49,489 nucleotides of DNA from positions 1 through 49,489 of the forward strand of contig JAUYGN010000099.1 in the NCBI GenBank assembly GCA_030690545.1, read 5' to 3'. Made by a program: the position numbers and the translations under genes. Below are positions 12,812 through 27,210 of this stretch, one piece after another. This DNA is from Solirubrobacteraceae bacterium (lineage in GTDB: Bacteria; Actinomycetota; Thermoleophilia; Solirubrobacterales; Solirubrobacteraceae). The notes below the pieces were generated by a model. That model was not told where the DNA came from and ran no database searches. It saw nothing but the letters and a program-made list of their open reading frames with translations. Positions within the stretch are counted from its first letter, which is position 1, and the number at the start of each line of letters is the position of its first letter.

Positions 12812-13372
12812 TCAGCCCGACGCGGGCGTCGCGTTGAGCAGGTCGACGACGAAGACGAGCGTCGCGCCCGGCGGGATCGAGCCCTGGCCCTGATCGCCGT
12901 AGGCGAGGTCGGGCGGAATCGTGAGCTGACGCCGGCCGCCGACCTTCATGCCCTCAAGGCCCTGATCCCAGCCGGGGATGACGTTGCCCTGGCCGAGCGT
13001 GAACGGGAACGTCTGGCCACTGTCCCACGAAGCGTCGAACTGCTCGCCCGTCTCGAACAGGACGCCGACGTAGTTGACGACGAGCTGATCGCCTGCCTGC
13101 ACGGCACGACCCTCGCCGGCGACGATGTCCTCGGCCTCGAGCTCCGTCGGCGGATCGCCGGACGGCTCCGGGATCTCCGGCTTCGTCGACGTGTCCGTCG
13201 AGACGGACCCTGAGGCAGAGCTTGAGGTCGAGGTCCCGGTGGTCGGAGTGGTCGGGGTGGTCGCCGGCGCCGCCGGGATCGCCGACTCCATCGGTGCGTC
13301 GTCCTCGTCGTCGCCGCATGCGCCGACGCCGACTGCCGCTGCCGCGACCAGCGCGATCACACGTCCGCGCAT
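12812..13372 (-). CDS. FKBP-type peptidyl-prolyl isomerase, probable lipoprotein
   Basis: 186 residues. The N-terminus has a signal peptide ending in a lipobox-like GVGAC (cysteine 19), so the protein is probably exported and lipid-anchored. A Thr/Ser/Pro-rich spacer of about 45 residues (ATTPTTPTTGTSTSSSASG) follows. The C-terminal FKBP domain (from about residue 80) has VVNYVGVLFETGEQFDASWD, FPFTLGQGNVIPGWDQGLEGM and LAYGDQGQGSIPPGATLVFVVDL in short order, including the active-site aromatic and tyrosine positions. It lies 5 bases after a cytosolic paralogue, so the pair arose by duplication and they are co-transcribed. Confidence 0.92.
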   Translation of the reverse strand: MRGRVIALVAAAAVGVGACGDDEDDAPMESAIPAAPATTPTTPTTGTSTSSSASGSVSTDTSTKPEIPEPSGDPPTELEAEDIVAGEGRAVQAGDQLVVNYVGVLFETGEQFDASWDSGQTFPFTLGQGNVIPGWDQGLEGMKVGGRRQLTIPPDLAYGDQGQGSIPPGATLVFVVDLLNATPASG

Positions 13373-13377
13373 ACGGC

Positions 13378-13773
13378 TTATCCGACCTTGAGGAGATCGA
13401 CGACGAAGACGAGCGTCTCGTTGGGCCCGATCGGGCCGACACCGCGCTCGCCGTAGGCCATCGACGGCGGGATCACGAGCGTGCGGCGGCCGCCCTCGCG
13501 CATCCCCGTGACGCCCATGTCCCAGCCCTGGATGACGCGCCCCGCGCCGAGCGGGAAGTCGAACGCCTGGCCGCGATCCCAGGAGGAGTCGAACTGCTTG
13601 CCGGAGTGAAACGACACGCCGACGTAGTGCACGGTGACGTGGACGCCGGGCTTGGCGGCGGCGCCCGCGCCGACGACGACGTCGTCGGTCGTCAGCTCCG
13701 TCGGCGGCACGCCGCTGGGCGCGGGGACCTCGGGCTTGGCGCCGAGGTCGTCTGAGATGTCGAGCTTGGTCAT
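13378..13773 (-). CDS. FKBP-type peptidyl-prolyl isomerase, cytosolic
   Basis: 131 residues without a signal peptide. A proline-isomerase/chaperone fold with the motifs VHYVGVSFHSGKQFDSSWD, FPLGAGRVIQGWDMGVTGM and MAYGERGVGPIGPNETLVF. The N-terminal PEVPAPSGVPPTELTTDDVV closely parallels the linker of the downstream lipoprotein paralogue (PEIPEPSGDPPTELEAEDIV), which shows recent duplication. The ATG at 13773 has TAGGCT 7 bases upstream, the leaderless arrangement seen elsewhere in this window. Confidence 0.93.
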   Translation of the reverse strand: MTKLDISDDLGAKPEVPAPSGVPPTELTTDDVVVGAGAAAKPGVHVTVHYVGVSFHSGKQFDSSWDRGQAFDFPLGAGRVIQGWDMGVTGMREGGRRTLVIPPSMAYGERGVGPIGPNETLVFVVDLLKVG

Positions 13774-13990: not shown

Positions 13991-16732
13991 TCAATGCCCG
14001 TTTGGCCGGAAGTCGCCGAACGTCCAATGGACGTTGTAGCCGCCGAACGTGCCTGCCGGTCCGGAGCGCAGGGGCGCCAGCACCTCGTCGAGCATCAGCT
14101 CCTCGATCAGCGCCGAGCGCAGGTCGAAGTCCTCGATCTCGGGCAGGTACTCCTCCTGGTTGGAGGGGACGAGCAGCGTGTCGAGCGTCTCGCGCACGAC
14201 GATCTCGTGCGTCTGGGTCGTCACGTCGCCGAAGAAGTGGCTGCGCAGCGCGTTGCCGACCTCCTCGCCGGTGTGCGGGCGCGGCAGGATGCGGCGGTTG
14301 GCGCGCTCGTCGTCGATCAGCGGCACGTCGCCCGTTGCGCGCAGGCGCGCGGCGGCAAGCGCGTCGCGCTGCAGCTGGCTGGCCGGCTGCAGCTCGCCGA
14401 GCAGCAGCTTCTTCCAGTGCGCGCGCACCATCCGGTTGGGATAGTGAAACGGCACCGCGTAGGGTCCGGGCACGCCGAGGTCCGGCGCGTTCCACAGCAG
14501 CCGGCCGCCGGGCGCCGTGATGCCGGCCAGCGACGCGGCGACCCGCTCGAGCGCGCGCGGCGGGATCAGGTGAAAGACCATGCTCGACATGACGACGTCC
14601 ATCTGGACGCCGCCGGTCACCTCGTGCAGCGGGCGAAAGCGCCCGTCGGCGCCGATCAGCGAGTGGCACTGCGTCCACGAGGACTCCTGCACGAGCGCGT
14701 GGCCCTGCGCGAACCAGCTCGACGGGATGTCGATCAGGTGCAGCTCGAAGTCGACGCCGCGGCGCGCCAGGCGCTGCTCGAAGCCGCGTTCGCGAAACGC
14801 CTTGAGCAGCTCGATCGCGGCCAGCGCGGTGCCGGTGCCGTAGTCGAGCACGCGCAGCGCGTCGCCCGGTCCGAGCGCCTCGACGCGCTCTTCGAGGGTG
14901 TCCATCGTCTGCGTGATCAGCAGGCTCGTCGAGGCCGACGCCCACAGCCGCGGGTGACGGACGTCGCCCTGCTCGAAGACGAGCTCGTGCAGACCGCGCC
15001 CGTCGCGCAGGTCCGTGCCGGGGTCGGGACGCCAGGTGTCGCGCCGCGCAGCGTCGGGATCGCCGCGCGCGATCAGCCCGCCCGCGTCGCTGAGCATGTG
15101 GTTGAGGCTGACGGCGACGAACGGGCGCGTCGTCGGGTAGCGCCGCTCGCCGGTCGCCGCTTGGCGCAGGCCGGCGCGGCGGCAGGCCGCGATGAACGCC
15201 GGCCGCTCGACCGGGTACTGGCCCGCGTAGCCGTTGTAGGCGTCGAACGCGAGGCTGTGCAACGCGCCGAGGTGGCGGGCCGTGACCTGCGACGCGACGC
15301 AGTGCGCTTCGAGCACGAGCAGCCCGTGACGCGCCACGTACGGCGTCCAGCGCGCCAGGTGCGCGGTCAGCTCGGCTTCGATCTCGGCGCCGGTCAGCGG
15401 CGCGCCGTCCGCGGCGATGTACGCGCCGCTCGACATGATCGTGCCGCCGTCCGGCGCGCGGGCGCCGTCGTGGCGCCGGTCGTGGTCGACGAACGCGTGC
15501 ACGTGCAGCCCGTCCTCGATCGCGAGGCCGTGCGCGGCGAGCGTCTCGCGCAGCGCGTCGGGATCGGCGGTGTCGCCATGCAGGACGAGCCCGTCGACGC
15601 CGGCATCGGCGAGCGTCCGACGCGCGCTGCGGACCGCCACCTCGCTGCGGTCGAGGCCGATCATCCGCAGCGGATGCTCGTCGAGGTGGCGTCCGCGGCG
15701 CGTGGCCGCTCGCACGCATGCGTCGATGCGGACGAGCCAGCGCCCGTCGTCGCAGCCGCTGACGACGACGAAGCGCGGCTGCTCGGCGAGCGGCTCACGG
15801 TCGAAGATGCTCGCGACAATCGGATCGGCGTCGGCGAAGTAGCGCCCGTGCGCGACCGAGCGGGCGCGCAGATCGACCTCGTCGTCGATGTGCCAGCCGC
15901 CGGCGTCGTCGCGCTCGTCGGACGCCGCGGTCAGCTCGCCGCGATACAGCTCGGGCAGGCGGGCGAACATCGGCAGGTAGGAGCCGACGAGGCCGAGATG
16001 CGCGACGAAGTCCAGCCCGTGTCGTCCGGCGTCCGTCCAGCCGCCTGCCTCGTCGGTCCAGCCGAGCGCTGCCAGCAGGCGGGCGGCGTGCTGCCCGACG
16101 TCATCGTCGGGCAGCAGCGGGCCGTCGCCGTGCAGGGCACCGGTCGCGTCGAGCCAGAGCAGCAGCGGCAGGGCGAGCGCGCCGTCGAGCTGGGTCCCGA
16201 GCTGGTCGCGCAGCTCGGGCGCCAGATCGTCGAGCCGCCAGCGCGCGACCGCCGGCTCGACGAGGGCCGCGAACCGCGCGGCGCGCTCGCCCGTCCAGGG
16301 CTCGGTCCAGCCGGCGGACGCGTTGTCGGTGAAGGTCGCGAGGAAGTCGCCGAGCTCGATCAGGCGTGCGTGATGGCGGGCAGCGGCGCGACCGGCCTCC
16401 GTCCAGACCGGCGTCGTGAGCTCTGGCGCCAGCGCCGGGCCGTCGCGCAGCCAGCCGGCCTGGGCGAGCGAACGCAGGCCGACGCGCAGGTGGCCGAAGC
16501 CGGTCGGCGTCAGGTCCGGGCACAGCTGTGCCACGGTCGCGTCGCGCTCCAGCGAGGGCGCGAGCAGGTCGATCGCGTCGATGCCGCGCACGGTCGCGCA
16601 CAGCACGATCCCGTCCTGAAACAGAAAGCTCGACCGGCGCAAGGCGTCCCTGCCGACAGCTCGATCGGTGATCGCCACGGCCGCATCTTCGCCGATCGCC
16701 GTGACGGACGCGCGGGTGACGAGCTCGTCCAT
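13991..16732 (-). CDS. Large double SAM-methyltransferase, AprA-MT1-like N-terminal part
   Basis: 913 residues. Residues about 1-300 form a helical region (FLFQDGIVLCATVRGIDAID, then TPTGFGHLRVGLRSLAQAGW). A first Rossmann domain follows with a degenerate motif I (VVVSGCDDGRW, 322-332), an acidic turn GLDRSE (359-364) and a conserved-looking strip HVHAFVDHDRRH (410-421) through DAYNGYAGQYPVE (497-509). This strip resembles, from memory, the AprA-MT1 class of iron-dependent methyltransferases that act on malonyl-ACP in polyketide synthases. A second, canonical class I domain has VLDYGTGTALAAIELL (628-643), LIDIP and VVMSSMVFHLIPP. No polyketide synthase is adjacent. The substrate is unknown. 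The ATG at 16732 overlaps the upstream stop by one base, so it is translationally coupled to the acetyltransferase. Confidence 0.8.
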   Translation of the reverse strand: MDELVTRASVTAIGEDAAVAITDRAVGRDALRRSSFLFQDGIVLCATVRGIDAIDLLAPSLERDATVAQLCPDLTPTGFGHLRVGLRSLAQAGWLRDGPALAPELTTPVWTEAGRAAARHHARLIELGDFLATFTDNASAGWTEPWTGERAARFAALVEPAVARWRLDDLAPELRDQLGTQLDGALALPLLLWLDATGALHGDGPLLPDDDVGQHAARLLAALGWTDEAGGWTDAGRHGLDFVAHLGLVGSYLPMFARLPELYRGELTAASDERDDAGGWHIDDEVDLRARSVAHGRYFADADPIVASIFDREPLAEQPRFVVVSGCDDGRWLVRIDACVRAATRRGRHLDEHPLRMIGLDRSEVAVRSARRTLADAGVDGLVLHGDTADPDALRETLAAHGLAIEDGLHVHAFVDHDRRHDGARAPDGGTIMSSGAYIAADGAPLTGAEIEAELTAHLARWTPYVARHGLLVLEAHCVASQVTARHLGALHSLAFDAYNGYAGQYPVERPAFIAACRRAGLRQAATGERRYPTTRPFVAVSLNHMLSDAGGLIARGDPDAARRDTWRPDPGTDLRDGRGLHELVFEQGDVRHPRLWASASTSLLITQTMDTLEERVEALGPGDALRVLDYGTGTALAAIELLKAFRERGFEQRLARRGVDFELHLIDIPSSWFAQGHALVQESSWTQCHSLIGADGRFRPLHEVTGGVQMDVVMSSMVFHLIPPRALERVAASLAGITAPGGRLLWNAPDLGVPGPYAVPFHYPNRMVRAHWKKLLLGELQPASQLQRDALAAARLRATGDVPLIDDERANRRILPRPHTGEEVGNALRSHFFGDVTTQTHEIVVRETLDTLLVPSNQEEYLPEIEDFDLRSALIEELMLDEVLAPLRSGPAGTFGGYNVHWTFGDFRPNGH

Positions 16733-17517
16733 CAGCGCCGCTCGGCGGGGCGCGCGCCGAGGTCCGGCGCGAGCGGGCGGATCTCGCGCGCGGGGGAGCC
16801 GGCGTAGAGAACGCCGCCGGGGTACTCGCCGCCGCGCACGAGCGACGAGCCGCCGAGCATGCCGTTGGGTCCCATCCGGACGCCGCGCAGCAGCAGCGAG
16901 TTCGCGCCGAGGAACGTGTTCGCGCCGATCACCACGGGCGCAATCGCGACGGGCTGCTCGTAGTTCGTCGTGCTGCTGCCGTCGTGGCGATGGTCGGAGT
17001 CGAAGATGCTGACGCGCTCGCCCGCGGCCGCGTCGTCGCCCAGCTGCACGCGCTGCAGCGCGTGCAGCGCCACCTGGGCGCCGAACTGGACGCGCGCGCC
17101 GAGCACGATCTCGCCGCCGTCCATCGCGTCGAGCAGGCAGTAGTCGCGGATCGTCGAGTCCTCGCCGATGCGCACGCTGCCGCCGCGCAGCTGGATCCGC
17201 GTGCCGGCGCGAAACGTGACGCGGTCGCCGAGCGCCAGCGTGTTGTCGGCCGCCGCCCAGACGTCGAGGATCTGGCCGCGGCCGAGCTGGACGTGCTCGC
17301 CGAGGCGGATCGTGAGCGTGCCGGCCTTGCCGCCGTAGGGATGGACCTCGACGGCGGGCAGCTCGTAGAAGTGCGCGCCGTGCGGAGCGTCGAGCTTCAG
17401 CCGCCCGCCGGCGCGGCGCAGGCGGGCGTCCAGGCGCCGCGCCCACAGCTCGAAGCGGGCGCGCTCGCCACGCAGGCGCAGCGCGCGCGCGGTCGATCGC
17501 AGTCCGGAGGCGCTCAT
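16732..17517 (-). CDS. Left-handed beta-helix (hexapeptide) O-acetyltransferase
   Basis: 261 residues. The centre consists of hexapeptide repeats (IRLGEHVQLGRGQIL, VTFRAGTRIQLRGGSVRIGE, IVLGARVQFGAQVALHALQR) typical of acetyl-CoA-dependent O-acetyltransferases of the maltose/galactoside type. The loop FDSDHRHDG carries the probable catalytic histidine, and the end has the usual VIGANTFLGANSLLLRGVRMG then YAGSPAREI. The N-terminal 45 residues are basic and helical. It is the middle gene of a three-gene operon: the stop of the acyltransferase-3 gene is 10 bases upstream and the methyltransferase start overlaps its stop. It probably acetylates a sugar or polyol. Confidence 0.88.
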   Translation of the reverse strand: MSASGLRSTARALRLRGERARFELWARRLDARLRRAGGRLKLDAPHGAHFYELPAVEVHPYGGKAGTLTIRLGEHVQLGRGQILDVWAAADNTLALGDRVTFRAGTRIQLRGGSVRIGEDSTIRDYCLLDAMDGGEIVLGARVQFGAQVALHALQRVQLGDDAAAGERVSIFDSDHRHDGSSTTNYEQPVAIAPVVIGANTFLGANSLLLRGVRMGPNGMLGGSSLVRGGEYPGGVLYAGSPAREIRPLAPDLGARPAERR

Positions 17518-17527
17518 GCGAGCCCCA

Positions 17528-18946
17528 TCATGGCAACGAGCGTTCGGTCGGCGGCTCGACGGCGACGATCTCGCTGGCGCCCGGATCGCTCCCGGCGGGC
17601 GGACCGGACGTCGTGTGACCGGCCGGTCCGGCTGTGGCGATCGCGGTGGCCGCGGCCGCCGGTGCCGGAGCGGGCGCGCCGGGGCCCGGCCGCCGCTCGC
17701 CGAGCGCCCAGCGCACGCGGCGCTCGAGGAACGGCCGCTCGACGAAGCGCCAGGAGAGCGCCGCCAGCGCGAGCGTGGCCGGCAGGCCGAGCGCGATCAT
17801 CGCGATCACGAGCGTCGTCGTGCCCGCGTCGGCGCCGACGAGGTCGATGACCTCGAAGATGATCCAGACGTGCAGCAGGTAGAAGGCGTAGGAGCGTGCT
17901 CCGAGGTAGCGGATCGGGCGGTTGGTCAGCCAGCGCGGCGCGCGCTCGGTGCCGAGCTGCCAGACGATCACCGCGGCGAGCGCGGCGCCGGCGCAGATCA
18001 CGGCCATCAGCGCGCGCCGGCCGAGCGCCCCGTGCAGCGCCGTCGTCTGGACCGCGTAGTCCCAGCTGGCGTAGGCCGCCCAGGAGAGCGCGACGAGCGC
18101 GACGAGCGCCCACGCCAGGCGACGGGCGCGGCGCGGGTTGCCGCGCAGCAGCGGCGCGGCGAGCGGCTCGGCGGCGGCGAGCATGATCCCCGGCACGAAG
18201 GCGTAGAAGATCAGCGGCGGGCTCGTCAGCGCGGCGAACGAGCCGCCGCCCTGACGCAGGTAGATGCTGACCAGCCCGGCGCCGCCGATCACGGCGAGCG
18301 CCGCGTACGCGCGGGCGCGCGTGGTGCGGACGCGCCCGCCGAGCCGGTGGCCGAGCAGCGCGGCGAGCGGCAGCAGCGCGTAGAAGGCCATCTCGGCGTT
18401 CAGCGACCAGGCCTGGCCGTAGGGCAGCGTCGCCGAGCCGCCGGTGTAGCTCTGCGTGAACGTGAAGATCGAGACGACCTGCCACCACTCCGACGGCGGC
18501 GCGGTGCCGGACGGGTTGTCGGGCGTCGGGCCGATCGCGCCGTCGAGGCCGAAGCGCAGCAGGACGAGCGCGGCGATGACGTAGAAGGCGGGCACGATCC
18601 GCAGCGCGCGGTTGCGCGCGAAGCGCGGCACGGACGGGCGCTGCGTGCCGAGGATGTACGAGCGCACGAACGGGCGCGCGATGAAGTAGCCCGACAGCGC
18701 GAAGAACAGTCCCAGCCCGAGGTCGAGGCGGCCGACGACCTCCTTCGCCCAGCCGTAGCTCTCGAACGCCTCGCCGGGATCGGCGTTGACGAAGACGTGG
18801 CCGAGGAAGACCATCAGCGCCGCGATCGCCCGCAGGCCGTCGCCGCCGTCGAGCGTGCCGATCAGCCCGTCGCCGACGGCGGGCTGCGCGCCCGCGCGCT
18901 CGTCCGTGGCCGTGGCGTCCGTCATGCGCGTGCAAGCCTGCCACAT
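17528..18946 (-). CDS. Acyltransferase-3 (OafA/YrhL-like) membrane protein
   Basis: 472 residues. Integral-membrane acyltransferase of the type that O-acylates surface polysaccharides or glycolipids. The family opening is present (LDGGDGLRAIAALMVFLGH, with the conserved histidine at the end of the first helix), then GLGLFFALSGYFIARPF, FARNRALRIVPAFYV and further hydrophobic helices, about ten in all. The last 40 residues are Ala/Pro-rich and cytosolic. Start: ATG at 18946, with GAGG about 9 bases upstream; an ATG at 18925 is also possible. It is the first gene of the operon with the acetyltransferase and double methyltransferase, and divergent from the tRNA-Thr gene. Confidence 0.9.
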   Translation of the reverse strand: MWQACTRMTDATATDERAGAQPAVGDGLIGTLDGGDGLRAIAALMVFLGHVFVNADPGEAFESYGWAKEVVGRLDLGLGLFFALSGYFIARPFVRSYILGTQRPSVPRFARNRALRIVPAFYVIAALVLLRFGLDGAIGPTPDNPSGTAPPSEWWQVVSIFTFTQSYTGGSATLPYGQAWSLNAEMAFYALLPLAALLGHRLGGRVRTTRARAYAALAVIGGAGLVSIYLRQGGGSFAALTSPPLIFYAFVPGIMLAAAEPLAAPLLRGNPRRARRLAWALVALVALSWAAYASWDYAVQTTALHGALGRRALMAVICAGAALAAVIVWQLGTERAPRWLTNRPIRYLGARSYAFYLLHVWIIFEVIDLVGADAGTTTLVIAMIALGLPATLALAALSWRFVERPFLERRVRWALGERRPGPGAPAPAPAAAATAIATAGPAGHTTSGPPAGSDPGASEIVAVEPPTERSLP

Positions 18947-18982: not shown

Positions 18983-19055
18983 GCCCGCCTAGCTCAATTG
19001 GCAGAGCACTTGATTTGTAATCAAGAGGTTGCCGGTTCGATTCCGGCGGCGGGCT
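18983..19055 (+). tRNA. tRNA-Thr (anticodon TGT)
   Basis: 73 nt. The acceptor stem GCCCGCC (18983-18989) pairs with GGCGGGC (19048-19054). D stem GCTC/GAGC, anticodon stem CTTGA/TCAAG with loop TTTGTAA giving anticodon TGT, and T arm GCCGGTTCGATTCCGGC. Discriminator T; CCA is not encoded. The 3' half, from within the anticodon stem to the last base, is the integration site of the adjoining prophage, which leaves the gene intact on the left. Confidence 0.97.
19012..19055 (+). repeat. attL core (44 bp, inside tRNA-Thr)
   Basis: Identical for 44 bases to 38315-38358. It covers the anticodon loop through the discriminator base, so the crossover regenerates a complete tRNA-Thr on the left. Identity stops sharply on both sides: T at 19011 against C at 38314, and T at 19056 against C at 38359. 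Confidence 0.95.
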
Positions 19056-19114
19056 TGAAGGAATAGCCTGCATTTATGGGGTTTCTGGTCGGGACGGCAA
19101 GCGAGGGGGGCGTA

Positions 19115-19170
19115 GGGAGTAGCGCTAGGGAGTAGCAATTAGCGTCGAGGGGCGCTACTCTCGGCGCTAC
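19115..19170. repeat. Integrase arm-type sites, left arm
   Basis: Two direct copies of GGGAGTAGC (19115-19123, 19128-19136) are followed by inverted GCTACTC (19154-19160) and GCTAC (19166-19170). The second copy extends to GGAGTAGCAATT (19129-19140), a 12-mer found again near attR at 38222-38233. Position next to the core and repetition at both ends fit integrase N-domain binding sites. Confidence 0.65.
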
Positions 19171-19262
19171 GCCCTGCCGATAGGACGGGCGACAACCCAA
19201 TACAAAAGCGCCCCCGCGCTGCTGACACAGCCGGGGGCATGGCACAAGGGAGAAGCCCCCTC

Positions 19263-19349
19263 ATGCTCGACCATCGTACGTTCCCGCTTGCGCTCACGCT
19301 CGCCGGAATGGTCCTCATCGTCGCCGGCCTTATGGGGCTGGCGGCATGA
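19263..19349 (+). CDS. Tiny single-span membrane peptide
   Basis: 28 residues, mostly one hydrophobic helix (FPLALTLAGMVLIVAGLMGLAA) after a short polar MLDHRT. GGGAGAAG lies about 7 bases upstream of the ATG. An ATG at 19239 would add eight residues. The stop overlaps the next start (ATGA), the first of three such overlaps, which supports its being translated. A holin-like or toxin-like role is possible by size and topology but not shown by the sequence. Confidence 0.5.
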   Translation: MLDHRTFPLALTLAGMVLIVAGLMGLAA

Positions 19350-19567
19350 CCCCAGTCGAGGCGATGCTGCTCGACGCGATCGAGCGAATGGAAACGATGG
19401 CCGCGGCCTTCGAGGTCCGCGGCCGGACCGACATCGCCGAAGAGCTGACGGCAGGCGCGCAGGTGCTCGCCAACCAGCTCGACGGCCGGGCCGGCGCTGA
19501 CGTGATCGCCAGCGCCGCGCTCGCGCAGGTCCAAGCGTTGGAGCGAATCTCCAGGAGCCTTGCATGA
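19346..19567 (+). CDS. Small helical prophage protein, unknown
   Basis: 73 residues, predicted almost fully alpha-helical (MTPVEAMLLDAIERMETMAA; then ADVIASAALAQVQALERISR). No recognised domain. It overlaps the preceding and following genes by ATGA, so it is part of a translationally coupled set downstream of attL. Confidence 0.6.
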   Translation: MTPVEAMLLDAIERMETMAAAFEVRGRTDIAEELTAGAQVLANQLDGRAGADVIASAALAQVQALERISRSLA

Positions 19568-19797
19568 CGACCGGCGTCGAGATCTATGACCGCCTGCTCG
19601 ATCGCGTCGAGGCTGGCCTGCGCGTTGTCGTCTGCCCGATGCGGGCGCCGGATGGGCGCTGCACGGTCGTCGGCGATGTACAGGCCGTGCCGCAGACCGT
19701 CGAAGGGCTACTGGTCTGTATGCGGCCCGACCTCGCCGCACTCAGTCATGCCGCCAGCGTGCAGCGCCTCGCGCTCCGTCGCGGGTACCGGTCATGA
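19564..19797 (+). CDS. Small prophage protein, unknown
   Basis: 77 residues with three cysteine-bearing or strand-like segments (LRVVVCPMRAPDGRCTVVGD, VEGLLVCMRPDL). No recognised family. ATGA overlaps on both sides couple it to the 73-residue protein and to the pilin-like protein. Confidence 0.6.
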   Translation: MTTGVEIYDRLLDRVEAGLRVVVCPMRAPDGRCTVVGDVQAVPQTVEGLLVCMRPDLAALSHAASVQRLALRRGYRS

Positions 19798-20285
19798 GCC
19801 TCGTCGAGGTCGTCGTGGCCGCGGCACTCATGCTCATCGTCAGCTTCGGGCTGCTTCGGACGCTCGACGCGACGACGGCGCAGGGAGCGCAGAACGCCGC
19901 ACGCGCTGAGGCCGTAGCTGTCGCTCGCGAGGCGACGGAGCGGCTGCGCGGGCTGCCAGACACGACGCTGGCGAGTTCGACCGGCATCGCGGCGGCTCTC
20001 GCTGCGCCGATGGGCGGCGCAGCAGCGCAAGATGCCGGCTTCGTGATCGACAGGACCGGCCGCGTCTTCGCACTCGCGTTCGAGACGTGCGGAGCGAACA
20101 TCGACGGGGCGGGTACATCGACGAGCTGCACGCCGGAAGCTGTCGGCCACGTGCAGCAGGTCGACGTGATCGTGAGCTGGGATCGGCCGCGAGCGGGGAG
20201 CTTCCAGCTCCGAAGCGTGCGCCTCGTAGGCGCGACGCCGGCAGTGCAGGCAGTTCAGGGGCAGGGGGAGGCTGTCGATACTTAG
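19794..20285 (+). CDS. Type IV pseudopilin-like protein lacking a leader
   Basis: 163 residues. The N-terminus (MSLVEVVVAAALMLIVSFGL) looks like the mature start of a PilV/GspI-type pseudopilin: glutamate at position 5 followed by a hydrophobic helix. A helical stretch (ARAEAVAVAREATERLRGLP) and a beta-rich globular end (VQQVDVIVSWDRPRAGSFQL) with two cysteines (ETCGAN, TSCTPE) complete it. There is no positively charged leader or -1 glycine: the ATG itself occupies mature position +1, and the codons just upstream in frame encode no leader. It may therefore bypass prepilin peptidase or simply be a one-span membrane protein. Its place in a prophage, next to attL, is unusual. ATGA-coupled to the gene before it. 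Confidence 0.6.
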   Translation: MSLVEVVVAAALMLIVSFGLLRTLDATTAQGAQNAARAEAVAVAREATERLRGLPDTTLASSTGIAAALAAPMGGAAAQDAGFVIDRTGRVFALAFETCGANIDGAGTSTSCTPEAVGHVQQVDVIVSWDRPRAGSFQLRSVRLVGATPAVQAVQGQGEAVDT

Positions 20286-20369
20286 TCGAGGGCGAAACGC
20301 GACCCTCGACGGGTCGCGTCCGCGACTGGAACGGTCGCGCTGACGAGCTCCCTAACGAAAGGCAAACCC

Positions 20370-20522
20370 GTGGCCCCACTGACGCTGACTGACGCCGACC
20401 TGCACTCGCTCGCGCGAGTGCGCGAGGCGCTGGTAGAGGCAGCTCGCGAGAGCGGGACTCTAGGAAGCCTGTACTGGCGCATCCATGGCAGCCTGCGCGA
20501 ACTCGAAGAGCAGAGCGCCTAG
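20370..20522 (+). CDS. Small prophage protein, unknown
   Basis: 50 residues, helical (LTDADLHSLARVREALVEAA; ending LYWRIHGSLRELEEQSA). AAAGG lies about 6 bases before the GTG. The stop is 7 bases before the integrase ATG at 20530, which suggests co-expression. Possibly a recombination accessory protein by position; no family recognised. Confidence 0.55.
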   Translation: MAPLTLTDADLHSLARVREALVEAARESGTLGSLYWRIHGSLRELEEQSA

Positions 20523-20529
20523 CAAGGCG

Positions 20530-21768
20530 ATGCCTGCCGCAACCCCAGCCGGCGCCCTCGTTGTCGTACCCGCGAAGGACGGCTCCGGCCGCCTGTACTT
20601 CGAGGCGACTTGGAGGCACGCGGGCCGCGCGATGAAGCGCCGGCTGGGGCCGGCTTGGGTCCGTCCGCGAGCGGCCCCGGCCGACGTGAAGGGCTGGCAG
20701 CGTAGCTACGAGAAGCGCCCCGGCAACCCTCGCAGTGGCGAGCTGACGCCCCAGCAGGCCACCGCGGCCATGCGCGACCTCATCGAGCAGGTCGCGACGT
20801 CGGCGCCCGTTAGCGGCGCCCCCAGGACGTTCAGAGAGGCCGCCCGTGCGTGGCTTGACGATCCGCACGAGCGTGCGCACACGTGGACGCCCGAGACGTA
20901 CGCCTTCAACCGGGGACTGCTCCGCGAGCCCGACGAGCGCGACGAGCGTCGCGGCCGGATCATGGCGGCATTCGGCGACAAGCGTGTCGACCGGATCACC
21001 GTCGAGGACATCCGCAAATACCTGCGAAGGCTCGACGGCAAGGTATCGGCACGGACCGTCAACGCCCATCGACAAGTCATGAGTAGCGTCTTCGCCGACG
21101 CAGCAGCCCGCGGTTGGCGCACGGGGAACCCTGCCGCGGCCGTCGCCAAGCGTCGCCAGCCCGCCGCGCCCGAGCTGAGCATGTTCACGGTCGAGCAGGT
21201 CGAGGCGATAGCCGCGCAGGCCGGCGGCGAACCGGGCGCGCTCATCATCGTCGCTGCGATGACCGGTCTACGGCGCGGCGAGCTCGTCGCGCTGCGCTGG
21301 CGCGACATCCACTTCCGGCAGGCCGCGATCCACGTCGGGCGCGCCGTGTCGGCTGGCGAGGTCAAGCGGCCGAAGTCCGGCAAGGGGCGCGTCGTGCCGC
21401 TCGCCGAGCGCCCCGCTGAGGTTCTGCGCGAGCTGTCCCGTCGCGAGCGCTGGACCGGCCCGGATGATCTCGTCTTCCCGCGCGCCGACGGTGGTCGTCG
21501 CGATCCCGACGCCGTGAGCCACGCGTACGTCGAGGCTCGCAACCGTGCGACGTCCCCAGCGATTCCGCTGGCCGACGCGGCCGGAGTCCCGCCGCTGCGC
21601 TTTCACGACCTGCGCCACACGTTCGGGACGCTCTGCGCCCGTGGCGGCGTGTCGGGCTTCGACATCCAGGCGTGGATGGGCCACTCCTCATACGCGACAA
21701 CCCAACGCTACCTTCACCACGCGCCGCGCGCCGATGACGCGGCGCGCTTGTCTGCGGTCCTTCGCTAG
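20530..21768 (+). CDS. int: Tyrosine-family phage integrase
   Basis: 412 residues. Catalyses site-specific recombination between the phage and tRNA-Thr attachment sites. Architecture: N-terminal arm-binding/AP2-like part (LYFEATWRHAGRAMKRRLG), SAM-like core-binding domain (about 100-200) and C-terminal catalytic domain. Catalytic residues visible: Arg248 in TGLRRGELVALRW, Lys in KSGKGR (272-277), His359-x-x-Arg362 in FHDLRHTF, His385 in WMGHSS and the nucleophile Tyr394 in TTQRYLHH. All are present, so the enzyme should be active. The ATG at 20530 is preferred; an in-frame ATG at 20485 would overlap the preceding gene. It ends 16 bases from the convergent collagen-like gene. Confidence 0.95.
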   Translation: MPAATPAGALVVVPAKDGSGRLYFEATWRHAGRAMKRRLGPAWVRPRAAPADVKGWQRSYEKRPGNPRSGELTPQQATAAMRDLIEQVATSAPVSGAPRTFREAARAWLDDPHERAHTWTPETYAFNRGLLREPDERDERRGRIMAAFGDKRVDRITVEDIRKYLRRLDGKVSARTVNAHRQVMSSVFADAAARGWRTGNPAAAVAKRRQPAAPELSMFTVEQVEAIAAQAGGEPGALIIVAAMTGLRRGELVALRWRDIHFRQAAIHVGRAVSAGEVKRPKSGKGRVVPLAERPAEVLRELSRRERWTGPDDLVFPRADGGRRDPDAVSHAYVEARNRATSPAIPLADAAGVPPLRFHDLRHTFGTLCARGGVSGFDIQAWMGHSSYATTQRYLHHAPRADDAARLSAVLR

Positions 21769-21784
21769 CCGGACCGGGCCTGCG

Positions 21785-22393
21785 TCACGCCGCCCGGAAG
21801 AAGATGCCGGAGAGGGCGAGGTAGCCGACAGGGTTCGACGCGCCGCCGACCTGTAGGAAGAGCTGGCCGTTGGTCTGCATGTCGACACGGGTAGCAGCGT
21901 TGGCGGGGTTGGTGCCCACGTGGAATAGCCGGTCTGATGGCGGGCGGTAGCCGACGGGCAGGGTGAGGATGACGCCGGTAACCCAGTTGCCGCCCGCTCG
22001 GTCGAGCAGACCCTCTAGGTAGACGATGCCGTTGTGCTTGTAGTACCCGGCGTGACCCCAAGGCGGGGTGCCCGTGCCGCCTCCAAACACGCGCCAACTG
22101 TTACTGAACGTGAAGGCGATCCGCGACTCCAGCGGCGGCGAGGCACCGGGCGGTCCAGTCGGACCCATCGGCCCGGTCAGCCCAGTCGGGCCAGCGGGGC
22201 CGGTCGCCCCCGTCGTTCCGGTCGCCCCCGTTGGTCCAGTCGGGCCGGTTGGTCCGGCGGGGCCCGTTGGCCCAGTCGGCCCCGGGGGTCCCGCCGAGCC
22301 GCCGCCGGGGACTGCGCGCTCCAACGTGCTTACCCGTCGGCCGAGAGCGCCGAACTCACTGGCCACGGTCGGGGCTTGCTCGTAGCTGCTCAT
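21785..22393 (-). CDS. Collagen-like tail tip/fibre protein
   Basis: 202 residues. A short N-terminal part (STLERAV, probable trimer-nucleating helix) precedes about 17-18 uninterrupted Gly-X-Y triplets at residues 31-88, mostly GPT with GAT, GPA and GPP. A C-terminal beta-rich domain (about 90-202; WGHAGYYKHNGIVYLEGLLD, then QTNGQLFLQVGG) is probably the trimeric receptor-binding head. Collagen-type stalks in phage fibres form triple helices that extend receptor-binding domains. It is the last gene of the late operon; its ATG overlaps the stop of the tip protein gene. The many threonines in the Y position are potential glycosylation sites. Confidence 0.85.
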   Translation of the reverse strand: MSSYEQAPTVASEFGALGRRVSTLERAVPGGGSAGPPGPTGPTGPAGPTGPTGPTGATGTTGATGPAGPTGLTGPMGPTGPPGASPPLESRIAFTFSNSWRVFGGGTGTPPWGHAGYYKHNGIVYLEGLLDRAGGNWVTGVILTLPVGYRPPSDRLFHVGTNPANAATRVDMQTNGQLFLQVGGASNPVGYLALSGIFFRAA

Positions 22394-23496
22394 GCCGCGA
22401 TCTCCGCTGAGACGGTGCCGGTCAGCGACGCGTCTTCGTCCGTGCTGTCTGGAGCTTGGAAGCGTTCGCGGCCGTCCTCGTCAAGGACGATCGTGATGGC
22501 GTTGATTCGCACGTTGACATCCTCCTCGATGGCGGCTCTGCGCACGAGGACACGCACGGTGTCGCCGAGCCAGTAGTCGTCAAACGGCTTCGGGGCAAGG
22601 GACGCGTCAGGTAGAAACTCGACAACGCGGACCGGAGCGGGGCGTAGTGCTGCGGTTGCGAGTACGTCGAGCCGCGGTTGCTCTTCCACGTCGGCGTGTC
22701 CAGCCAGCGTCGCCCACCGGCCGTGCGCGGCGATGGCCGTCTGTGTGCTGACGAGCGCGTCCTTGCCGATCGCGTGGCTGACGCTGATCGGCGGGCTGAT
22801 CGTGCGCGTGAACTCGGTGACGTTCGCACGTGTCTGTTCGCCATGCTCGAACCGGACCGTTGCGGTCCGGTTGATGCCCTGCGCGGCCACGATGTGCAGC
22901 TCGGCGAGTGCTGTTCCGGTGTCGATTGGGCGCTCGAAGAAGTCGAAGCCGCCGGACAGTTCGGAGAGGTCCACGATCGCGCGCCCGATGTTCGTTCCGG
23001 CCGCGTAGGTGATGTCGCGGGCGACGGTGGCTTCCGTCGCGCCCGTTGTCGTGAGCCCGGTTGCGCCGAGCGCGTTCTCTGTGTCTACGAGCTGCTTAGC
23101 GATCTGCGCGGCCTGCACCCCGACGAACGGCGCGGGCGCAGGGAACATGAACCGTCCCGTGCGTGAGCCGTCGCCCAGCAGGCGCCAGAACGGGGACCGG
23201 AACGTTGCCGTGATGGTGGCGTCGTGCTCGGCGTGATCTCGGACGAGCGCCAGGTGGCCGCGGAACCGTAGGGTGCCGTTTGCTGCGCTGTCGGCGTGTC
23301 GGTGAGCGCGAAGCTCCGGGACGCCGCGCTTGAGTGCGTGGTGCAGCAGTCCGGCGGCGGGGTCTTCGGCGCTGAGCGTCAAAGTGACTTCGGCGTAGTG
23401 GTTGCGTCGCCATGACAGCGACACATCGCGAGCGGTCGTGAGCTGCGCGAGAGGGGCGCCGCCAGGTTGGCAGAGCTGTAGGGACCAGTCAGCCAT
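22390..23496 (-). CDS. Phage tail tip / Gp37-like protein
   Basis: 368 residues. By position (after the distal tail protein) and content it resembles the ReqiPepy6 Gp37-like family of actinophage tail proteins, which are related to the baseplate hub. Visible: an N-terminal strand-rich part (VSLSWRRNHYAEVTLTLSAE), a central domain with a FDFFERP segment, and a C-terminal module with DDYWLGDTVRVLVRR and VRINAITIVLDEDGRERF, typical of hub beta domains. Its start overlaps the stop of the preceding gene by one base. There is no visible peptidoglycan hydrolase motif. Confidence 0.72.
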   Translation of the reverse strand: MADWSLQLCQPGGAPLAQLTTARDVSLSWRRNHYAEVTLTLSAEDPAAGLLHHALKRGVPELRAHRHADSAANGTLRFRGHLALVRDHAEHDATITATFRSPFWRLLGDGSRTGRFMFPAPAPFVGVQAAQIAKQLVDTENALGATGLTTTGATEATVARDITYAAGTNIGRAIVDLSELSGGFDFFERPIDTGTALAELHIVAAQGINRTATVRFEHGEQTRANVTEFTRTISPPISVSHAIGKDALVSTQTAIAAHGRWATLAGHADVEEQPRLDVLATAALRPAPVRVVEFLPDASLAPKPFDDYWLGDTVRVLVRRAAIEEDVNVRINAITIVLDEDGRERFQAPDSTDEDASLTGTVSAEIAA

Positions 23497-24890
23497 CAGT
23501 ACGCGTCCCTATGGATGACGGTGAGTCGCGGGTTCTGGGAGGAGTGCGCCGACGCGAGGCGAAGCTGTGTCGTCCCGGTGGGCAGATCGGTCCAGCGGGA
23601 GTTCGCAGAGTCGATCATGTGCCGCAGTGAGATGCGTTGGCCGGGCCGGACGAGATCTACCGTCCTCGTCCGCACGTCAATCTCAATCCACCCTGTCGCC
23701 GCTTCGCTGGACAGCTGTCCACGAAGGGAAACGATGCAGCCGTCAGGCGAGAAGACGGCCGGGTTGAAGACGCCCCATGTCGCCGCGCCACCGATCCGCA
23801 GTATGGCCGGTGTCTCTCGCTCGCCTGCGTTCGTGACGTTCACGAGGCCGCCCGCGGCGTCTCCGGTGGATGAGAGTGAGTTGTGCACGGTACCCTGCCA
23901 TCGACAGCCCGGCGAGTCCCCGTCGAAGTACGGCGCATCGGCGGGGGCGCTGGGCGTGATCTTTGCGGCATCGACGTAGACCGGTCCGGTCGAGCCGGTC
24001 AACGCGCTACGCACGGCCAGCGACACAATGCTCGACGAGCCCAGTGTGAAGGCGACCGACAGCCGCCGGAACTCCGGGAACTGGTCGAACGTGTGGGCAG
24101 CGACAATAGGGCTACCGGACGGGCCGGCCGCAAGCTGGACTTGGTAGCCGAGCGGACCTGCTACCCACACGTCGGCGCGGTATGTGCCGGCGGCTAGGGT
24201 TATCGTGGAGGTCACGATCCCCTGCCCCGCCGGGCTGGTCGTATGCGTGAAGCTCCCGACGTACTGGCCGGACGGTGCAGTGAGGCCGCCCGGAAGTTCC
24301 GAGTCATGAGCGCGGGTGAGTGTCGCTGCGCCGCTGAGATGCGTTCCCGACGTCGACCAGCCGGTCGTATTGATCTCGAAGCTCGGATTCAGCACGCGGT
24401 TTACCATGCTCGCTGATGTCGTCGCGGCTGCACCGACGACAGTCGTTTCGGTTTGACGGTAGGCACGCGGATCGGACGCGGCGAGGATTGCTTGGTAGCG
24501 CAGTAGCGCTTGCGCTTCCTTCAGCGTCGGCGAAATGCCGCTGGCGAGCTTGACGAGCCGCTGAAGCTGAAGGCCTGATGCGCCTTCAGTCCACTTCAGC
24601 ATCGCGGGCTGGCCGTCGAGTGTGGCGACCAGCGGTGATGTGATCGCGCGCAGCTCGGCGTACGCGGCTTCCGGCGTGCCGCCGAACACGTCGCCGACGA
24701 TCTCGATTAGCTGCTCGTCGGTGTAGCGCGTCTCGTCAATCGTGCCATGCCCGGTCGGGCGCGGACGGACGCTGCGACGCACGGGCGAGCTGCCCTGCAA
24801 GCCCTTGACCTCCACGACCTCGCGGCCAGCGGTGTTCATGAGCGCGACGGGGGACCCCGCTTGGTTGTCGATGGTCAATGCAGAGAGCAT
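23496..24890 (-). CDS. Distal tail (Dit-like) protein with an inserted carbohydrate-binding-like domain
   Basis: 464 residues. The N-terminal about 150 residues resemble a siphophage Dit/tail-tube-cap domain (VEVKGLQGSS, DETRYTDEQLIEIVGDVFGG). A central jelly-roll-like domain starts at about 165 with LNPSFEINTTGWSTSG, the opening typical of CBM4/9-type modules, and runs to about 310. The C-terminal part (from about 350) resumes the Dit-type scaffold (GWIEIDVRTRTVDLVRPGQ). Inserted CBM domains in evolved Dit proteins are known to help phages bind host surface glycans. Its role as host-binding protein here is inferred from architecture and location after the tape measure. Confidence 0.75.
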   Translation of the reverse strand: MLSALTIDNQAGSPVALMNTAGREVVEVKGLQGSSPVRRSVRPRPTGHGTIDETRYTDEQLIEIVGDVFGGTPEAAYAELRAITSPLVATLDGQPAMLKWTEGASGLQLQRLVKLASGISPTLKEAQALLRYQAILAASDPRAYRQTETTVVGAAATTSASMVNRVLNPSFEINTTGWSTSGTHLSGAATLTRAHDSELPGGLTAPSGQYVGSFTHTTSPAGQGIVTSTITLAAGTYRADVWVAGPLGYQVQLAAGPSGSPIVAAHTFDQFPEFRRLSVAFTLGSSSIVSLAVRSALTGSTGPVYVDAAKITPSAPADAPYFDGDSPGCRWQGTVHNSLSSTGDAAGGLVNVTNAGERETPAILRIGGAATWGVFNPAVFSPDGCIVSLRGQLSSEAATGWIEIDVRTRTVDLVRPGQRISLRHMIDSANSRWTDLPTGTTQLRLASAHSSQNPRLTVIHRDAY

Positions 24891-24901
24891 CCAGTTTCCC
24901 C

Positions 24902-26788
24902 TTATCCGAACCGAAGGCTGTAGGCGAGTTCGCTTGCGGCGATCCGGGCCGCGCGCTGCGAACCGACCGGTGCGTTGAAGTTGACTACCGTGTCGCCGCC
25001 GACTGGCACGTCGTGCGAGCGCTGGCCCGACGACAGCAGACCGCGTGTCTTGGATGCCGTATGCACGAACGATCCCGCCTGTAGTTCGACAAGCTCGGGA
25101 CCCTCTTCACCGACGAGGGTGAGTCCGCCGCGTGACAGCCCGCCGCGGGCTTTGCGGTCGATCGCTCCGACAGCGCCGCCGATGATGGTCTTGCGCGTGA
25201 TCTCGTGCACGTCGATCGTGACGCTCTTGTGCGCCGGGATGCCGTTGATCTGATCCTTCCAGCCACGCGTCGCCTCGCGTGCCCTGTCGATGCGCTCAGA
25301 CGCGTCAGACGCCCAGCCGAAGCCGGGGACCTTCCCGAGCCCACCGAACAGCGTGCTGACGCCGCCAGCGAGCTTGTCGAACGCGCCGATCACGAGGTTG
25401 AGCGCTGCGAGTCCGGCGCCCTTGAGCAGGTTGAACAGCCCATCGACGGCGCTGCGGAACGTCTCGGAGTTCTTGTAAGCGACAACAATGGCACCGGCCA
25501 GGAGCGCCAGCGCGGTCACGACAATGCCGATCGGGTTGGCTCGCATCGCCGCGTTGAGCCCCCAGAACGCTGCCGTCCAACCGCCCGTCACGAATGTCAC
25601 AGTCGCCACGGTCGCGCCGTACGTGATCGCCGTAGCCTTTGCCGTGAGCAGGGCTCCGACGACGACCATGATCGCGGTCTTGTTCTCGTCAAGAATCCTG
25701 ACTGCCGTCAGCAGCACCGGGATCAGATCGACGCCAACGCCGATCGCGAAGGCGTTGACCTTCTGCTTGAGCTTCTCCCATTGAAGGGCAACGCTCTTTG
25801 ACTGCTCAAGAAAGACCGTGTTCGTGGCACCGGACACGTCGCCGAACGCCTTCAGGTCGGCTGCCGCCGCCTTCGTGTTGTTGCCCGTCAGCGACAGCAC
25901 GCCGCCGAGCGCACGCACGTTCGGAAACAGCGTCGCGAGCGCTTCCTTGGTACCGTCAGACGTTCCGGCGACGGCTTCCATCGCGCCTTGCAGGCCGCGG
26001 GACTTGATCAGCGCCTCGCCGGACTCAAATCCAGTCGCCCGGATCGCCTCGCTCATGTCCGTCGACGGCTTGATGAACGCCGACATCACGGCCTTCAGCC
26101 GTGTAGTCGACTCGGCCCCCGAAAGTCCCTGCTTGGTCATCGTGGCGATCGCCGCGCCGACCTGCGTGATGTCGATTCCAAGCGAACTGGCGTATGGCAG
26201 GACATCACCGATCGAACCGGCCAATTCCTCGAAGCTGACGACGCCGAGATCGACGGTCTTGAAGAGTGCGTCGGTGACGTGAGCGGCCCGCGTGGCTGGC
26301 AGTCGGTAGGCATTCAGCGTGGCCGCGATCGCCTTCGTACTCACGTCGGTCGTGGTCAGGCCGGCTGTCGCTGCCTTTGCGCTAGACGCCAAGATCACCA
26401 TTGAGTCCTTGGCGTTGAAGCCGGAACCGACGAGATCGTTGAGGCCCATCGCCAAAGTCTTGGGCGCTTGCCCGACGTCGCCCGCGAGGCTTAGGACCTC
26501 CTTCTGGAGCGCCTTGAAGCTGTCCTCGGACAGGCCGGCTAGCGAGTTGACGCTGCGCATTTCACGGTCAAACTCGATCGTGTTGCGAGCCACGGTCGTG
26601 AGGGCACGACCGACGCCGACGATGCCGACAGCGCCCGCCGCGAACTTCGCGAAGGACTTGACCGCGCCGCCGATTGATGCCTTCGTCTTCACGCCGAACC
26701 GCTCGGTCGCCGAACCGGCCGCGCCCATTGACCGCTGAAAAGAGGCAGCATCACCGATGAGCTGTACTTCGATCACTCTCTTAGCCAC
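24902..26788 (-). CDS. Tail tape measure protein, TP901 type
   Basis: 628 residues. Sets tail length and is ejected ahead of DNA. The TP901 core is seen at about residues 70-330 (TIEFDREMRSVNSLAGLSED, ALQKEVLSLAGDVGQAPKTL, GVVSFEELAGSIGDVLPYAS, TMTKQGLSGAESTTRLKAVM). Hydrophobic stretches at about 375-450 (IMVVVGALLTAKATAITYGA; GIVVTALALLAGAIVVAY) are probable membrane-insertion segments. The C-terminus has GLSRGGLTLVGEEGPELVEL, common in tape measures. Using the usual length rule of about 1.5 angstrom per residue, the tail would be near 90-100 nm. The GTG at 26788 overlaps the tail-chaperone extension frame. Residues about 45-60 are encoded by DNA duplicated at 37886-37933. Confidence 0.93.
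   Translation of the reverse strand: MAKRVIEVQLIGDAASFQRSMGAAGSATERFGVKTKASIGGAVKSFAKFAAGAVGIVGVGRALTTVARNTIEFDREMRSVNSLAGLSEDSFKALQKEVLSLAGDVGQAPKTLAMGLNDLVGSGFNAKDSMVILASSAKAATAGLTTTDVSTKAIAATLNAYRLPATRAAHVTDALFKTVDLGVVSFEELAGSIGDVLPYASSLGIDITQVGAAIATMTKQGLSGAESTTRLKAVMSAFIKPSTDMSEAIRATGFESGEALIKSRGLQGAMEAVAGTSDGTKEALATLFPNVRALGGVLSLTGNNTKAAAADLKAFGDVSGATNTVFLEQSKSVALQWEKLKQKVNAFAIGVGVDLIPVLLTAVRILDENKTAIMVVVGALLTAKATAITYGATVATVTFVTGGWTAAFWGLNAAMRANPIGIVVTALALLAGAIVVAYKNSETFRSAVDGLFNLLKGAGLAALNLVIGAFDKLAGGVSTLFGGLGKVPGFGWASDASERIDRAREATRGWKDQINGIPAHKSVTIDVHEITRKTIIGGAVGAIDRKARGGLSRGGLTLVGEEGPELVELQAGSFVHTASKTRGLLSSGQRSHDVPVGGDTVVNFNAPVGSQRAARIAASELAYSLRFG
26607..26654 (-). repeat. 48-bp segment duplicated in inverse orientation at 37886-37933
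   Basis: Within the tape measure gene, encoding FAKFAAGAVGIVGVGR. The reverse complement matches 37886-37933 at 47 of 48 positions; the one change (ATC to GTC) converts Ile to Val. Flanks do not match. Confidence 0.8.
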
Positions 26789-26936
26789 GATTCAGCTCCT
26801 TCAGATCATCGGCGACTGCATTCATCTCGGAAAGCGTCATCGCGGCCAGCTCCCACGGCCGGATGCCGTAGACCCGCGCAAGCGTCGGCGTCCAGAGATC
26901 GCGCGGGTCATCACCTAACCTCCAGCGGGAACGGCG
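26781..26936 (-). CDS. Tail assembly chaperone C-terminal extension (T frame), reached by -1 frameshift
   Basis: No own start is needed: this frame is open from the C CCA AAC slip site to a TAA that overlaps the tape measure start. It encodes 51 residues including DDPRDLWTPTLARVYGIRPW and ELAAMTLSEMNAVADDLKEL, the short WE/M-rich pattern usual for the second tail-chaperone reading frame. Slippage would give a G-T fusion of about 142 residues. Position just before the tape measure gene is where G/GT pairs always lie in siphophages. Confidence 0.82.
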   Translation of the reverse strand, partial: RRSRWRLGDDPRDLWTPTLARVYGIRPWELAAMTLSEMNAVADDLKELNRG

Positions 26937-27208: not shown

Positions 27209-27210
27209 AT

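What the first reader, a model, noticed from the sequence alone, without database searches (positions are those of the whole stretch)
13991..18946. Operon of acyltransferase-3, beta-helix acetyltransferase and a standalone AprA-like double methyltransferase
Three genes with 10-base and 1-base junctions encode a membrane O-acyltransferase, a soluble O-acetyltransferase and a 913-residue protein with two methyltransferase domains. The first domain's VDHDRRH...GQYPVE strip resembles, from memory, AprA-MT1, which methylates malonyl-ACP in a polyketide synthase. Here there is no polyketide synthase, and the second domain is a normal class I methyltransferase. The set may decorate a surface glycan or an unknown small molecule, a candidate undescribed pathway.
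Basis: partly seen in the sequence, partly recalled or inferred. Interest (0 to 1): 0.68.

Follow-up and report, generated by a model that had tools for sequence, protein, structure and literature searches.

The report
Stand-alone AprA-type double methyltransferase operon
A soil actinobacterium carries, next to two acyl-group-attaching enzymes, a free-standing two-part methyltransferase related to enzymes that normally sit inside antibiotic-type assembly lines, and a sister species has such an assembly line, ending in a relative of one of those attaching enzymes, at the same chromosomal spot.

Summary
Three minus-strand genes (18946-17528, 17517-16732, 16732-13991) encode an acyltransferase-3, a hexapeptide-repeat (LbH) acyltransferase and a 913-aa protein with two methyltransferase domains. 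The first is a homologue of AprA-MT1 and SxtA-MT (PF23525 E 3.7e-78; PDB E 3e-54 and 6e-58) with the AprA winged helix. The second is a divergent class I MT whose nearest sequence relatives are assembly-line MTs, AprA-MT2 among them (weak, E 0.05-0.9). The protein occurs in 5 of 7 congeneric genomes, no other sampled Thermoleophilia, and Streptomyces cattleya beside a large PKS. "No polyketide synthase" holds only locally: at the same tRNA-Thr/FKBP interval a congener carries AT3, a glycosyltransferase and a 3,073-aa PKS ending in an LbH domain 39% identical to gene 2; two others have both the MT gene and the PKS-LbH. Best model: a branched short acyl thioester is made without a PKS and LbH and AT3 put it on a glycan; chemistry inferred. 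Caveat: in the window's subclade the first domain keeps the presumed metal residues, but its SAM motif is degenerate (VSGCDDG), so it may not methylate. New variant of a known kind.

The parts
17528..18946 (-). Gene 1: membrane acyltransferase-3 (472 aa)
   Evidence: PF01757 1.9e-29, 103 bits against cut-off 31; orthologues 78-82% (G400, G395) and 51-55% (G230, at the same interval)
16732..17517 (-). Gene 2: left-handed beta-helix (hexapeptide) O-acyltransferase, LbH (261 aa)
   Evidence: PF00132 8.1e-9; WbbJ-like NCBIfam 7e-14; 39-41% to the C-terminal domain of the congeners' PKS; conserved DSDHxHDGS motif in most relatives
13991..16732 (-). Gene 3: 913-aa AprA-like double methyltransferase
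16445..16642 (-). AprA_N-like N-terminal domain, residues 31-96
   Evidence: PF23526 24.8 bits, just under cut-off 27; 27.5 bits, just over it, in the S. cattleya homologue
15938..16186 (-). AprA winged-helix domain, residues 183-265
   Evidence: PF23589 29.3 bits against cut-off 27
15095..15895 (-). MT1-like domain, residues 280-546
   Evidence: PF23525 3.7e-78; PDB 7uci (SxtA MT) and 6b39 (AprA MT1)
15743..15760 (-). Degenerate SAM motif I of the MT1-like domain (SGCDDG, residues 325-330; MGCGDG in AprA and SxtA)
15479..15487 (-). Asp416-His417-Asp418, aligned with DHD of AprA/SxtA; presumed metal ligands
   Evidence: ligand assignment from recollection
15302..15304 (-). His477 (LEAHC; LEVHS in AprA), presumed metal ligand
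   Evidence: ligand assignment from recollection
13994..15076 (-). C-terminal MT2-like region, residues 553-913; Rossmann core about 600-770
   Evidence: Methyltransf_25 29.3 bits; nearest PDB sequences are PKS C-MTs; fold Z 10-11 to class I MTs including AprA-MT2
14828..14848 (-). Intact SAM motif I of the MT2-like domain (LDYGTGT, residues 629-635)
14570..14572 (-). His721, aligned with the His of the NVLHA motif of PKS C-MTs; invariant in 6 of 6 homologues
12812..13773 (-). Two FKBP-type isomerase genes that bound the variable interval on one side (not part of the pathway)
18983..19055 (+). tRNA-Thr(TGT) that bounds the variable interval on the other side

Best explanation
Gene 3 is a free-standing version of the methylating part of an AprA-type PKS loading module (MT1-like plus MT2-like domain, without GNAT, ACP or KS). 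It works in trans on a malonyl-type acyl thioester carried by a free-standing ACP: the MT1-like domain binds the malonyl group at a metal site, and the MT2-like domain, with methylation by MT1 where its SAM site is intact (G081, G175), turns it into a short alpha-methyl-branched acyl group (propionyl, isobutyryl or pivaloyl). The co-transcribed LbH acyltransferase, and possibly AT3, transfer this acyl group to a hydroxyl of a cell-surface glycan or glycolipid. In sister species a type I PKS with methylmalonyl-type AT motifs makes a branched short acyl chain and hands it to its own fused LbH domain, so the operon looks like a PKS-free route to a similar decoration. Shown: homologies, domain order, conserved gene order, the shared interval, PKS-LbH fusions. 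Inferred: substrate, product, ACP partner, acceptor, and that LbH uses the MT product.
For: MT1 homology to AprA-MT1 and SxtA-MT; SxtA MT methylates malonyl-ACP with iron and AprA dimethylates (PMC10784701). MT2-like domain nearest to PKS/NRPS MTs including AprA-MT2. Overlapping genes and AT3-LbH-MT order conserved in related species. LbH relatives fused to PKS in G081, G175 and G230, with glycosyltransferase 2 adjacent in all three, and AT3 too in G230. G230's PKS lies in the same tRNA-Thr/FKBP interval. AT motifs YASH (methylmalonyl type) and a KSQ loading domain. LbH relatives in glycan loci of G280, G256 and G399. Full-length homologue in S. cattleya beside a modular PKS.
Against: The MT1 SAM motif is degenerate in the window's subclade, and its SAM half has dN/dS 0.54-0.59 against 0.30-0.33 for the metal half and 0.22 for the MT2 core. 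The S. cattleya homologue has DQA in place of DHD. No ACP gene lies in the operon. G081 and G175 keep the MT gene without AT3 or LbH beside it, so the link to acyltransferases is not universal. MT2 assignment rests on E-values of 0.05-0.9 and a poor model. The stand-alone LbH is closer to another stand-alone LbH (G399, 51%) than to the PKS-fused ones (39-41%).
Confidence: 0.38

Rival explanations
1. Only the C-terminal domain is a methyltransferase; the MT1-like part is a pseudo-domain that serves as scaffold or binds substrate. Gene 3 methylates an acyl-ACP or another acid or sugar intermediate, and AT3 plus LbH acetylate the same surface glycan (ordinary glycan tailoring).
For: Degenerate motif I and faster evolution of the MT1 SAM half in three species; MT2 core is the most conserved part; LbH NCBIfam hits are WbbJ/WcaF-type O-acetyltransferases; LbH relatives in glycan loci.
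Against: Presumed metal residues and the FDAYxGxxxQYPVE strip stay conserved, and the metal half is under clear constraint, which an inert scaffold need not show; the nearest relatives of the MT2-like domain act on carrier-bound substrates.
Confidence: 0.3
2. Gene 3 acts in trans on a PKS encoded elsewhere in the genome, supplying a starter or C-methylating its ACP-bound intermediate; the two acyltransferases are unrelated neighbours in a variable tRNA-flanked island.
For: S. cattleya homologue sits beside a modular PKS; G081 and G175 have the MT gene alone at the interval and the PKS-LbH elsewhere; the own genome has a TE-KS PKS fragment at the end of C47.
Against: A KS as close as the C47 one was not found in G175 or G400, which have the MT gene (G400 is only 70% complete); the PKS-LbH was not found in G000 or G395; the conserved coupling of LbH and MT in the near subclade would be coincidence.
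Confidence: 0.2
3. The second domain is an O-methyltransferase that forms a methyl ester of a malonyl-type thioester (as BioC or Art28 do), so the product is a protected ester primer, not a branched acyl.
For: The Foldseek list for the poor model includes carboxyl O-MTs of the SABATH family and BioC is in the VIA list (Z 9.6); malonyl-ACP O-methyl esterification is a known way to start a polyketide (abstract of PMC8302727).
Against: Sequence searches name PKS/NRPS MTs, not SABATH or BioC; the structural ranks are tied and the model is poor (mean pLDDT 49.6).
Confidence: 0.12

Closest known systems
AprA of apratoxin biosynthesis (MT1, pseudo-GNAT, MT2; PDB 6b39, 6d6y)
   Same: MT1-like domain with AprA N-terminal and winged-helix domains, then a second, dissimilar MT; DHD and H residues aligned
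   Different: No GNAT and no carrier domain, free-standing; MT2 similarity only weak; SAM motif of MT1 degenerate in the window protein
SxtA N-terminal methyltransferase (PDB 7uci)
   Same: Best PDB match over residues 78-546, E 5.7e-58
   Different: By prior knowledge SxtA goes on to GNAT, ACP and an aminotransferase domain; the window protein goes on to a second MT
S. cattleya pSCATT double methyltransferase (L018:14971-17550)
   Same: Full-length 41-44% homologue with both MT domains
   Different: Lies beside a modular type I PKS; DQA replaces DHD; SAM motif I intact; no LbH or AT3 gene recognised among the ORFs read in its flanks
Congeners' PKS-LbH (G081 AT-ACP-KS-AT-DH-ER-KR-ACP-LbH; G230 KSQ-AT-ACP-KS-AT-DH-KR-ACP-LbH)
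   Same: LbH domain 39-41% to gene 2; in G230 the same tRNA-Thr/FKBP interval with an AT3 51-55% to gene 1
   Different: Acyl chain made by a PKS instead of the double methyltransferase; glycosyltransferase 2 present
Burkholderia stagnalis 713-aa AprA-MT-like protein (L020:11056-13197)
   Same: AprA-like domain outside a PKS polypeptide (PF23525 1.3e-35, partial)
   Different: No second MT recognised; set among AMP-ligase and KAS-III-type genes

Membership tests
AprA-MT1/SxtA-type MT family (PF23525) | Sequence homology over the whole MT domain | tested here: met
   PF23525 residues 280-544, profile 2-268 of 268, E 3.7e-78; PDB matches
AprA-MT1/SxtA-type MT family (PF23525) | AprA N-terminal domain and winged helix before the MT | tested here: met
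   WH_AprA over its cut-off, AprA_N just under it
AprA-MT1/SxtA-type MT family (PF23525) | Mononuclear metal site | tested here: inconclusive
   DHD and H477 aligned with AprA/SxtA; which residues bind metal is from recollection; metal binding not testable here
Active malonyl-ACP C-methyltransferase of that family | Intact SAM-binding motif I | tested here: not met
   VSGCDDG in the window protein against DMGCGDG in AprA; intact or nearly so in L011, L012 and L018. So it is filed as a homologue, not as a proven active MT1
Active malonyl-ACP C-methyltransferase of that family | Methylates malonyl-ACP with Fe(II) and SAM | not testable with these tools
   needs enzyme assay
AprA-type PKS loading module | GNAT and ACP domains in the same chain, feeding a KS | tested here: not met
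   No such domain in the 913 aa, none in the neighbouring ORFs
AprA-MT2 / PKS C-MT | Class I fold with significant sequence similarity to PKS C-MTs | tested here: inconclusive
   All PDB hits below E 10 are PKS C-MTs but E is 0.05-0.9; structural Z 10.7 to AprA-MT2 tied with other MTs
AprA-MT2 / PKS C-MT | His-Glu catalytic dyad (PMC9821293) | tested here: inconclusive
   His721 aligned and invariant; at the expected Glu position (counted from recollection of CMeT) the sequence is NAPD, invariant in six homologues
LbH (hexapeptide) acyltransferase | Hexapeptide repeats and conserved His motif | tested here: met
   PF00132 over cut-off; DSDHxHDGS in most relatives
Acyltransferase-3 | Acyl_transf_3 domain | tested here: met
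   PF01757 103 bits against cut-off 31

The most novel reading that the evidence does not exclude
A PKS-independent pathway in which a free-standing AprA-type double methyltransferase builds an alpha-branched (isobutyryl or pivaloyl) acyl-ACP from malonyl-ACP, which a dedicated LbH acyltransferase places on a cell-surface glycan; within one genus this system and a PKS ending in a homologous LbH domain alternate at one chromosomal interval. In the window's subclade the MT1-like domain may have become a metal-dependent malonyl-binding or decarboxylating domain without methyl transfer.
Probability: 0.25. Interest if true: 0.68.

Novelty: new variant of a known kind. Interest (0 to 1): 0.5.

Why it matters
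AprA/SxtA-type metal-dependent methyltransferases are best known as parts of PKS loading modules. A free-standing double methyltransferase coupled to glycan-type acyltransferases would show that this chemistry also serves outside assembly lines, and offers small, separable enzymes for making branched (even t-butyl) acyl groups. The genus gives a natural comparison: one chromosomal interval filled either by a PKS-acyltransferase fusion or by the methyltransferase-acyltransferase operon.

Tried and rejected
Structure prediction of the C-terminal domain and of the whole protein with five homologues gave poor models (mean pLDDT 49.6 and 45.6); metal-site geometry was therefore not measured, and the Foldseek and VIA ranks were used only to say 'class I MT fold'. 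SABATH carboxyl-MTs rank high in Foldseek but were not found by sequence. The window protein's own C-terminal region has no PDB hit by phmmer; profile and relatives were needed. The original AprA and SxtA papers are not in the library, so metal ligands and the mono/dimethylation switch could not be checked against them. Using Streptomyces as a centre for a wider survey failed. No plasmid record has a gene 2 relative at E 1e-20. The idea that gene 2 was recently split off a PKS was dropped: it is closer to a stand-alone LbH of G399 (51%) than to the fused ones. The 937-aa plus-strand ORF opposite gene 3 was treated as a high-GC shadow ORF.

Full report
Observation. AT3 (18946-17528) is followed after 10 bases by LbH (17517-16732), whose stop codon shares one base with the start of the 913-aa gene 3 (16732-13991). 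Two FKBP genes lie downstream, and a tRNA-Thr (18983-19055) lies just upstream of AT3.

What gene 3 is. Pfam finds the AprA-like methyltransferase domain PF23525 over its full length (residues 280-544, E 3.7e-78), the AprA winged helix (over its cut-off) and the AprA N-terminal domain (just under it). Against the PDB, residues 78-546 match the SxtA methyltransferase (7uci, 5.7e-58) and residues 178-546 match AprA-MT1 (6b39, 3.1e-54). The PDB calls 7uci only 'polyketide synthase-related protein'; that it is SxtA is my reading, from recollection and PMC10784701. Pfam calls the domain 'AprA MT2-like', but the PDB chain it corresponds to is named AprA Methyltransferase 1. SxtA's domain is an iron-dependent C-methyltransferase on malonyl-ACP and AprA dimethylates (PMC10784701). 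The DHD and LEAH residues that I take from recollection to be metal ligands are aligned and conserved.

The second domain (residues 553-913, core about 600-770) has an intact LDYGTGT motif. As a profile its only PDB hits are four PKS C-methyltransferases (citrinin synthase 0.12, CurJ 0.13, DisA 0.88, AprA-MT2 0.93). The S. cattleya homologue's domain alone hits DisA (0.045) and AprA-MT2 (0.054), and its nearest relatives on plasmids, other than itself, include two NRPSs and a very large protein annotated as an SDR oxidoreductase that I take to be a type I PKS. These are weak but consistent. The predicted model is poor; structural search says class I MT, with PKS C-MTs tied with others. His721 aligns with the His of the PKS C-MT NVLHA motif, but NAPD stands where I expect the Glu of the dyad. 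So the protein resembles AprA's MT1 and MT2 without GNAT and ACP.

Is it active? In the window protein and in L009 and L010, motif I of the MT1-like domain reads V-S/T-G-C-D-D-G or similar instead of D-x-G-C-G-D-G; L011 keeps the canonical form, and L012 nearly so. By Nei-Gojobori counts the SAM half of MT1 evolves faster (dN/dS 0.54-0.59, window against L009/L010) than the metal half (0.30-0.33) and the MT2 core (0.22). In S. cattleya the reverse is seen: intact SAM motif, DHD changed to DQA. Each lineage has thus altered a different half of the presumed MT1 site. I therefore do not file the window protein as an active malonyl-ACP methyltransferase, only as a member of the sequence family.

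Distribution. Over 399 Thermoleophilia genomes PF23525 exceeds its cut-off only in the window's genus; within the genus 5 of 7 genomes have the full protein, and one of the two without it is only 77% complete. A sample of 396 Actinomycetota adds only weak, partial hits. The second domain alone is also confined to the genus in a sample of 199. S. cattleya pSCATT has a full-length homologue (41-44%) divergent from a large modular PKS. A Janthinobacterium PKS carries the AprA-like domain in its loading region, with GNAT and ACP, and a Burkholderia protein carries part of it outside any PKS.

Neighbourhood. The genes lie in a variable interval between FKBP and tRNA-Thr(TGT), seen whole in four genomes. 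Window: MT, LbH, AT3. G081 and G175: MT only. G230, the most distant by RlmB (70% against 83-85%): AT3 (51-55% to gene 1), glycosyltransferase 2 and a 3,073-aa PKS. G400 and G395 share the window's gene order as far as contigs reach, with extra genes before the FKBP pair and no tRNA on the piece. The C-terminal 230 residues of G230's PKS, and of the PKSs of G081 and G175 at other places, are 39-41% identical to gene 2. Domain orders: G081 AT-ACP-KS-AT-DH-ER-KR-ACP-LbH; G230 KSQ-AT-ACP-KS-AT-DH-KR-ACP-LbH; G175 ER-KR-ACP-LbH to the contig end. The extender AT motifs in G081 and G230 are YASH, which by established knowledge points to methylmalonyl, so these PKSs should make short alpha-methyl-branched chains handed to the fused LbH. 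No PKS-LbH was found in G000 or G395. Stand-alone LbH relatives in G280, G256 and G399 lie among glycosyltransferase and, in G280, apparent polysaccharide genes (read from sequence, not scanned), which points to a glycan acceptor.

Explanation. The most economical reading is that both kinds of locus supply a short branched acyl group for an LbH acyltransferase: by a PKS in one case, by methylation of a malonyl-type thioester in the other. The operon order, the LbH-PKS fusions and the shared interval are shown; the chemistry and acceptor are inferred. Against a firm link, G081 and G175 keep gene 3 without adjacent acyltransferases, and gene 2 is closer to a stand-alone LbH than to the fused ones. 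Rivals are ordinary glycan tailoring with a partly dead MT, and trans action on a PKS elsewhere.

Verdict. 'No polyketide synthase' holds for the window but not for the wider picture. New variant of a known kind; interest 0.5.

Noticed in passing
window 19012-38358: A prophage is integrated in tRNA-Thr(TGT): integrase-like gene 20485-21768, phage-type genes to about 37 kb, and a direct repeat of about 44 bases between the tRNA 3' part (19012-19055) and 38315-38358, the likely attL/attR.
   Followed up: partly
L043 (own genome C47:43000-59086): Siderophore-like cluster: ACP, PPTase, fused ABC exporter, Fe-type binding protein and a thioesterase-KS protein cut by the contig end.
   Followed up: partly
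L072:8479-16424 (G395 C73): Cluster with a KS-AT-ACP-aminotransferase (alpha-oxoamine-synthase-like) PKS and, read from sequence, a free ACP, an adenylate ligase, a thioesterase and a PPTase.
   Followed up: no
L044:2-3664 (own genome C35): 1,220-aa open frame with a divergent KS and weak FAS-I helical-domain similarity, cut by the contig end; perhaps a type I FAS-like protein.
   Followed up: no
L096, L099, L070: LbH relatives of gene 2 lie near, or beside, an apparent LigD-type DNA ligase gene in several Solirubrobacteraceae, a conserved neighbourhood of unknown meaning.
   Followed up: no
PF23525: Pfam labels the family 'AprA MT2-like' although the matching PDB chain (6b39) is named AprA Methyltransferase 1.
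   Followed up: partly
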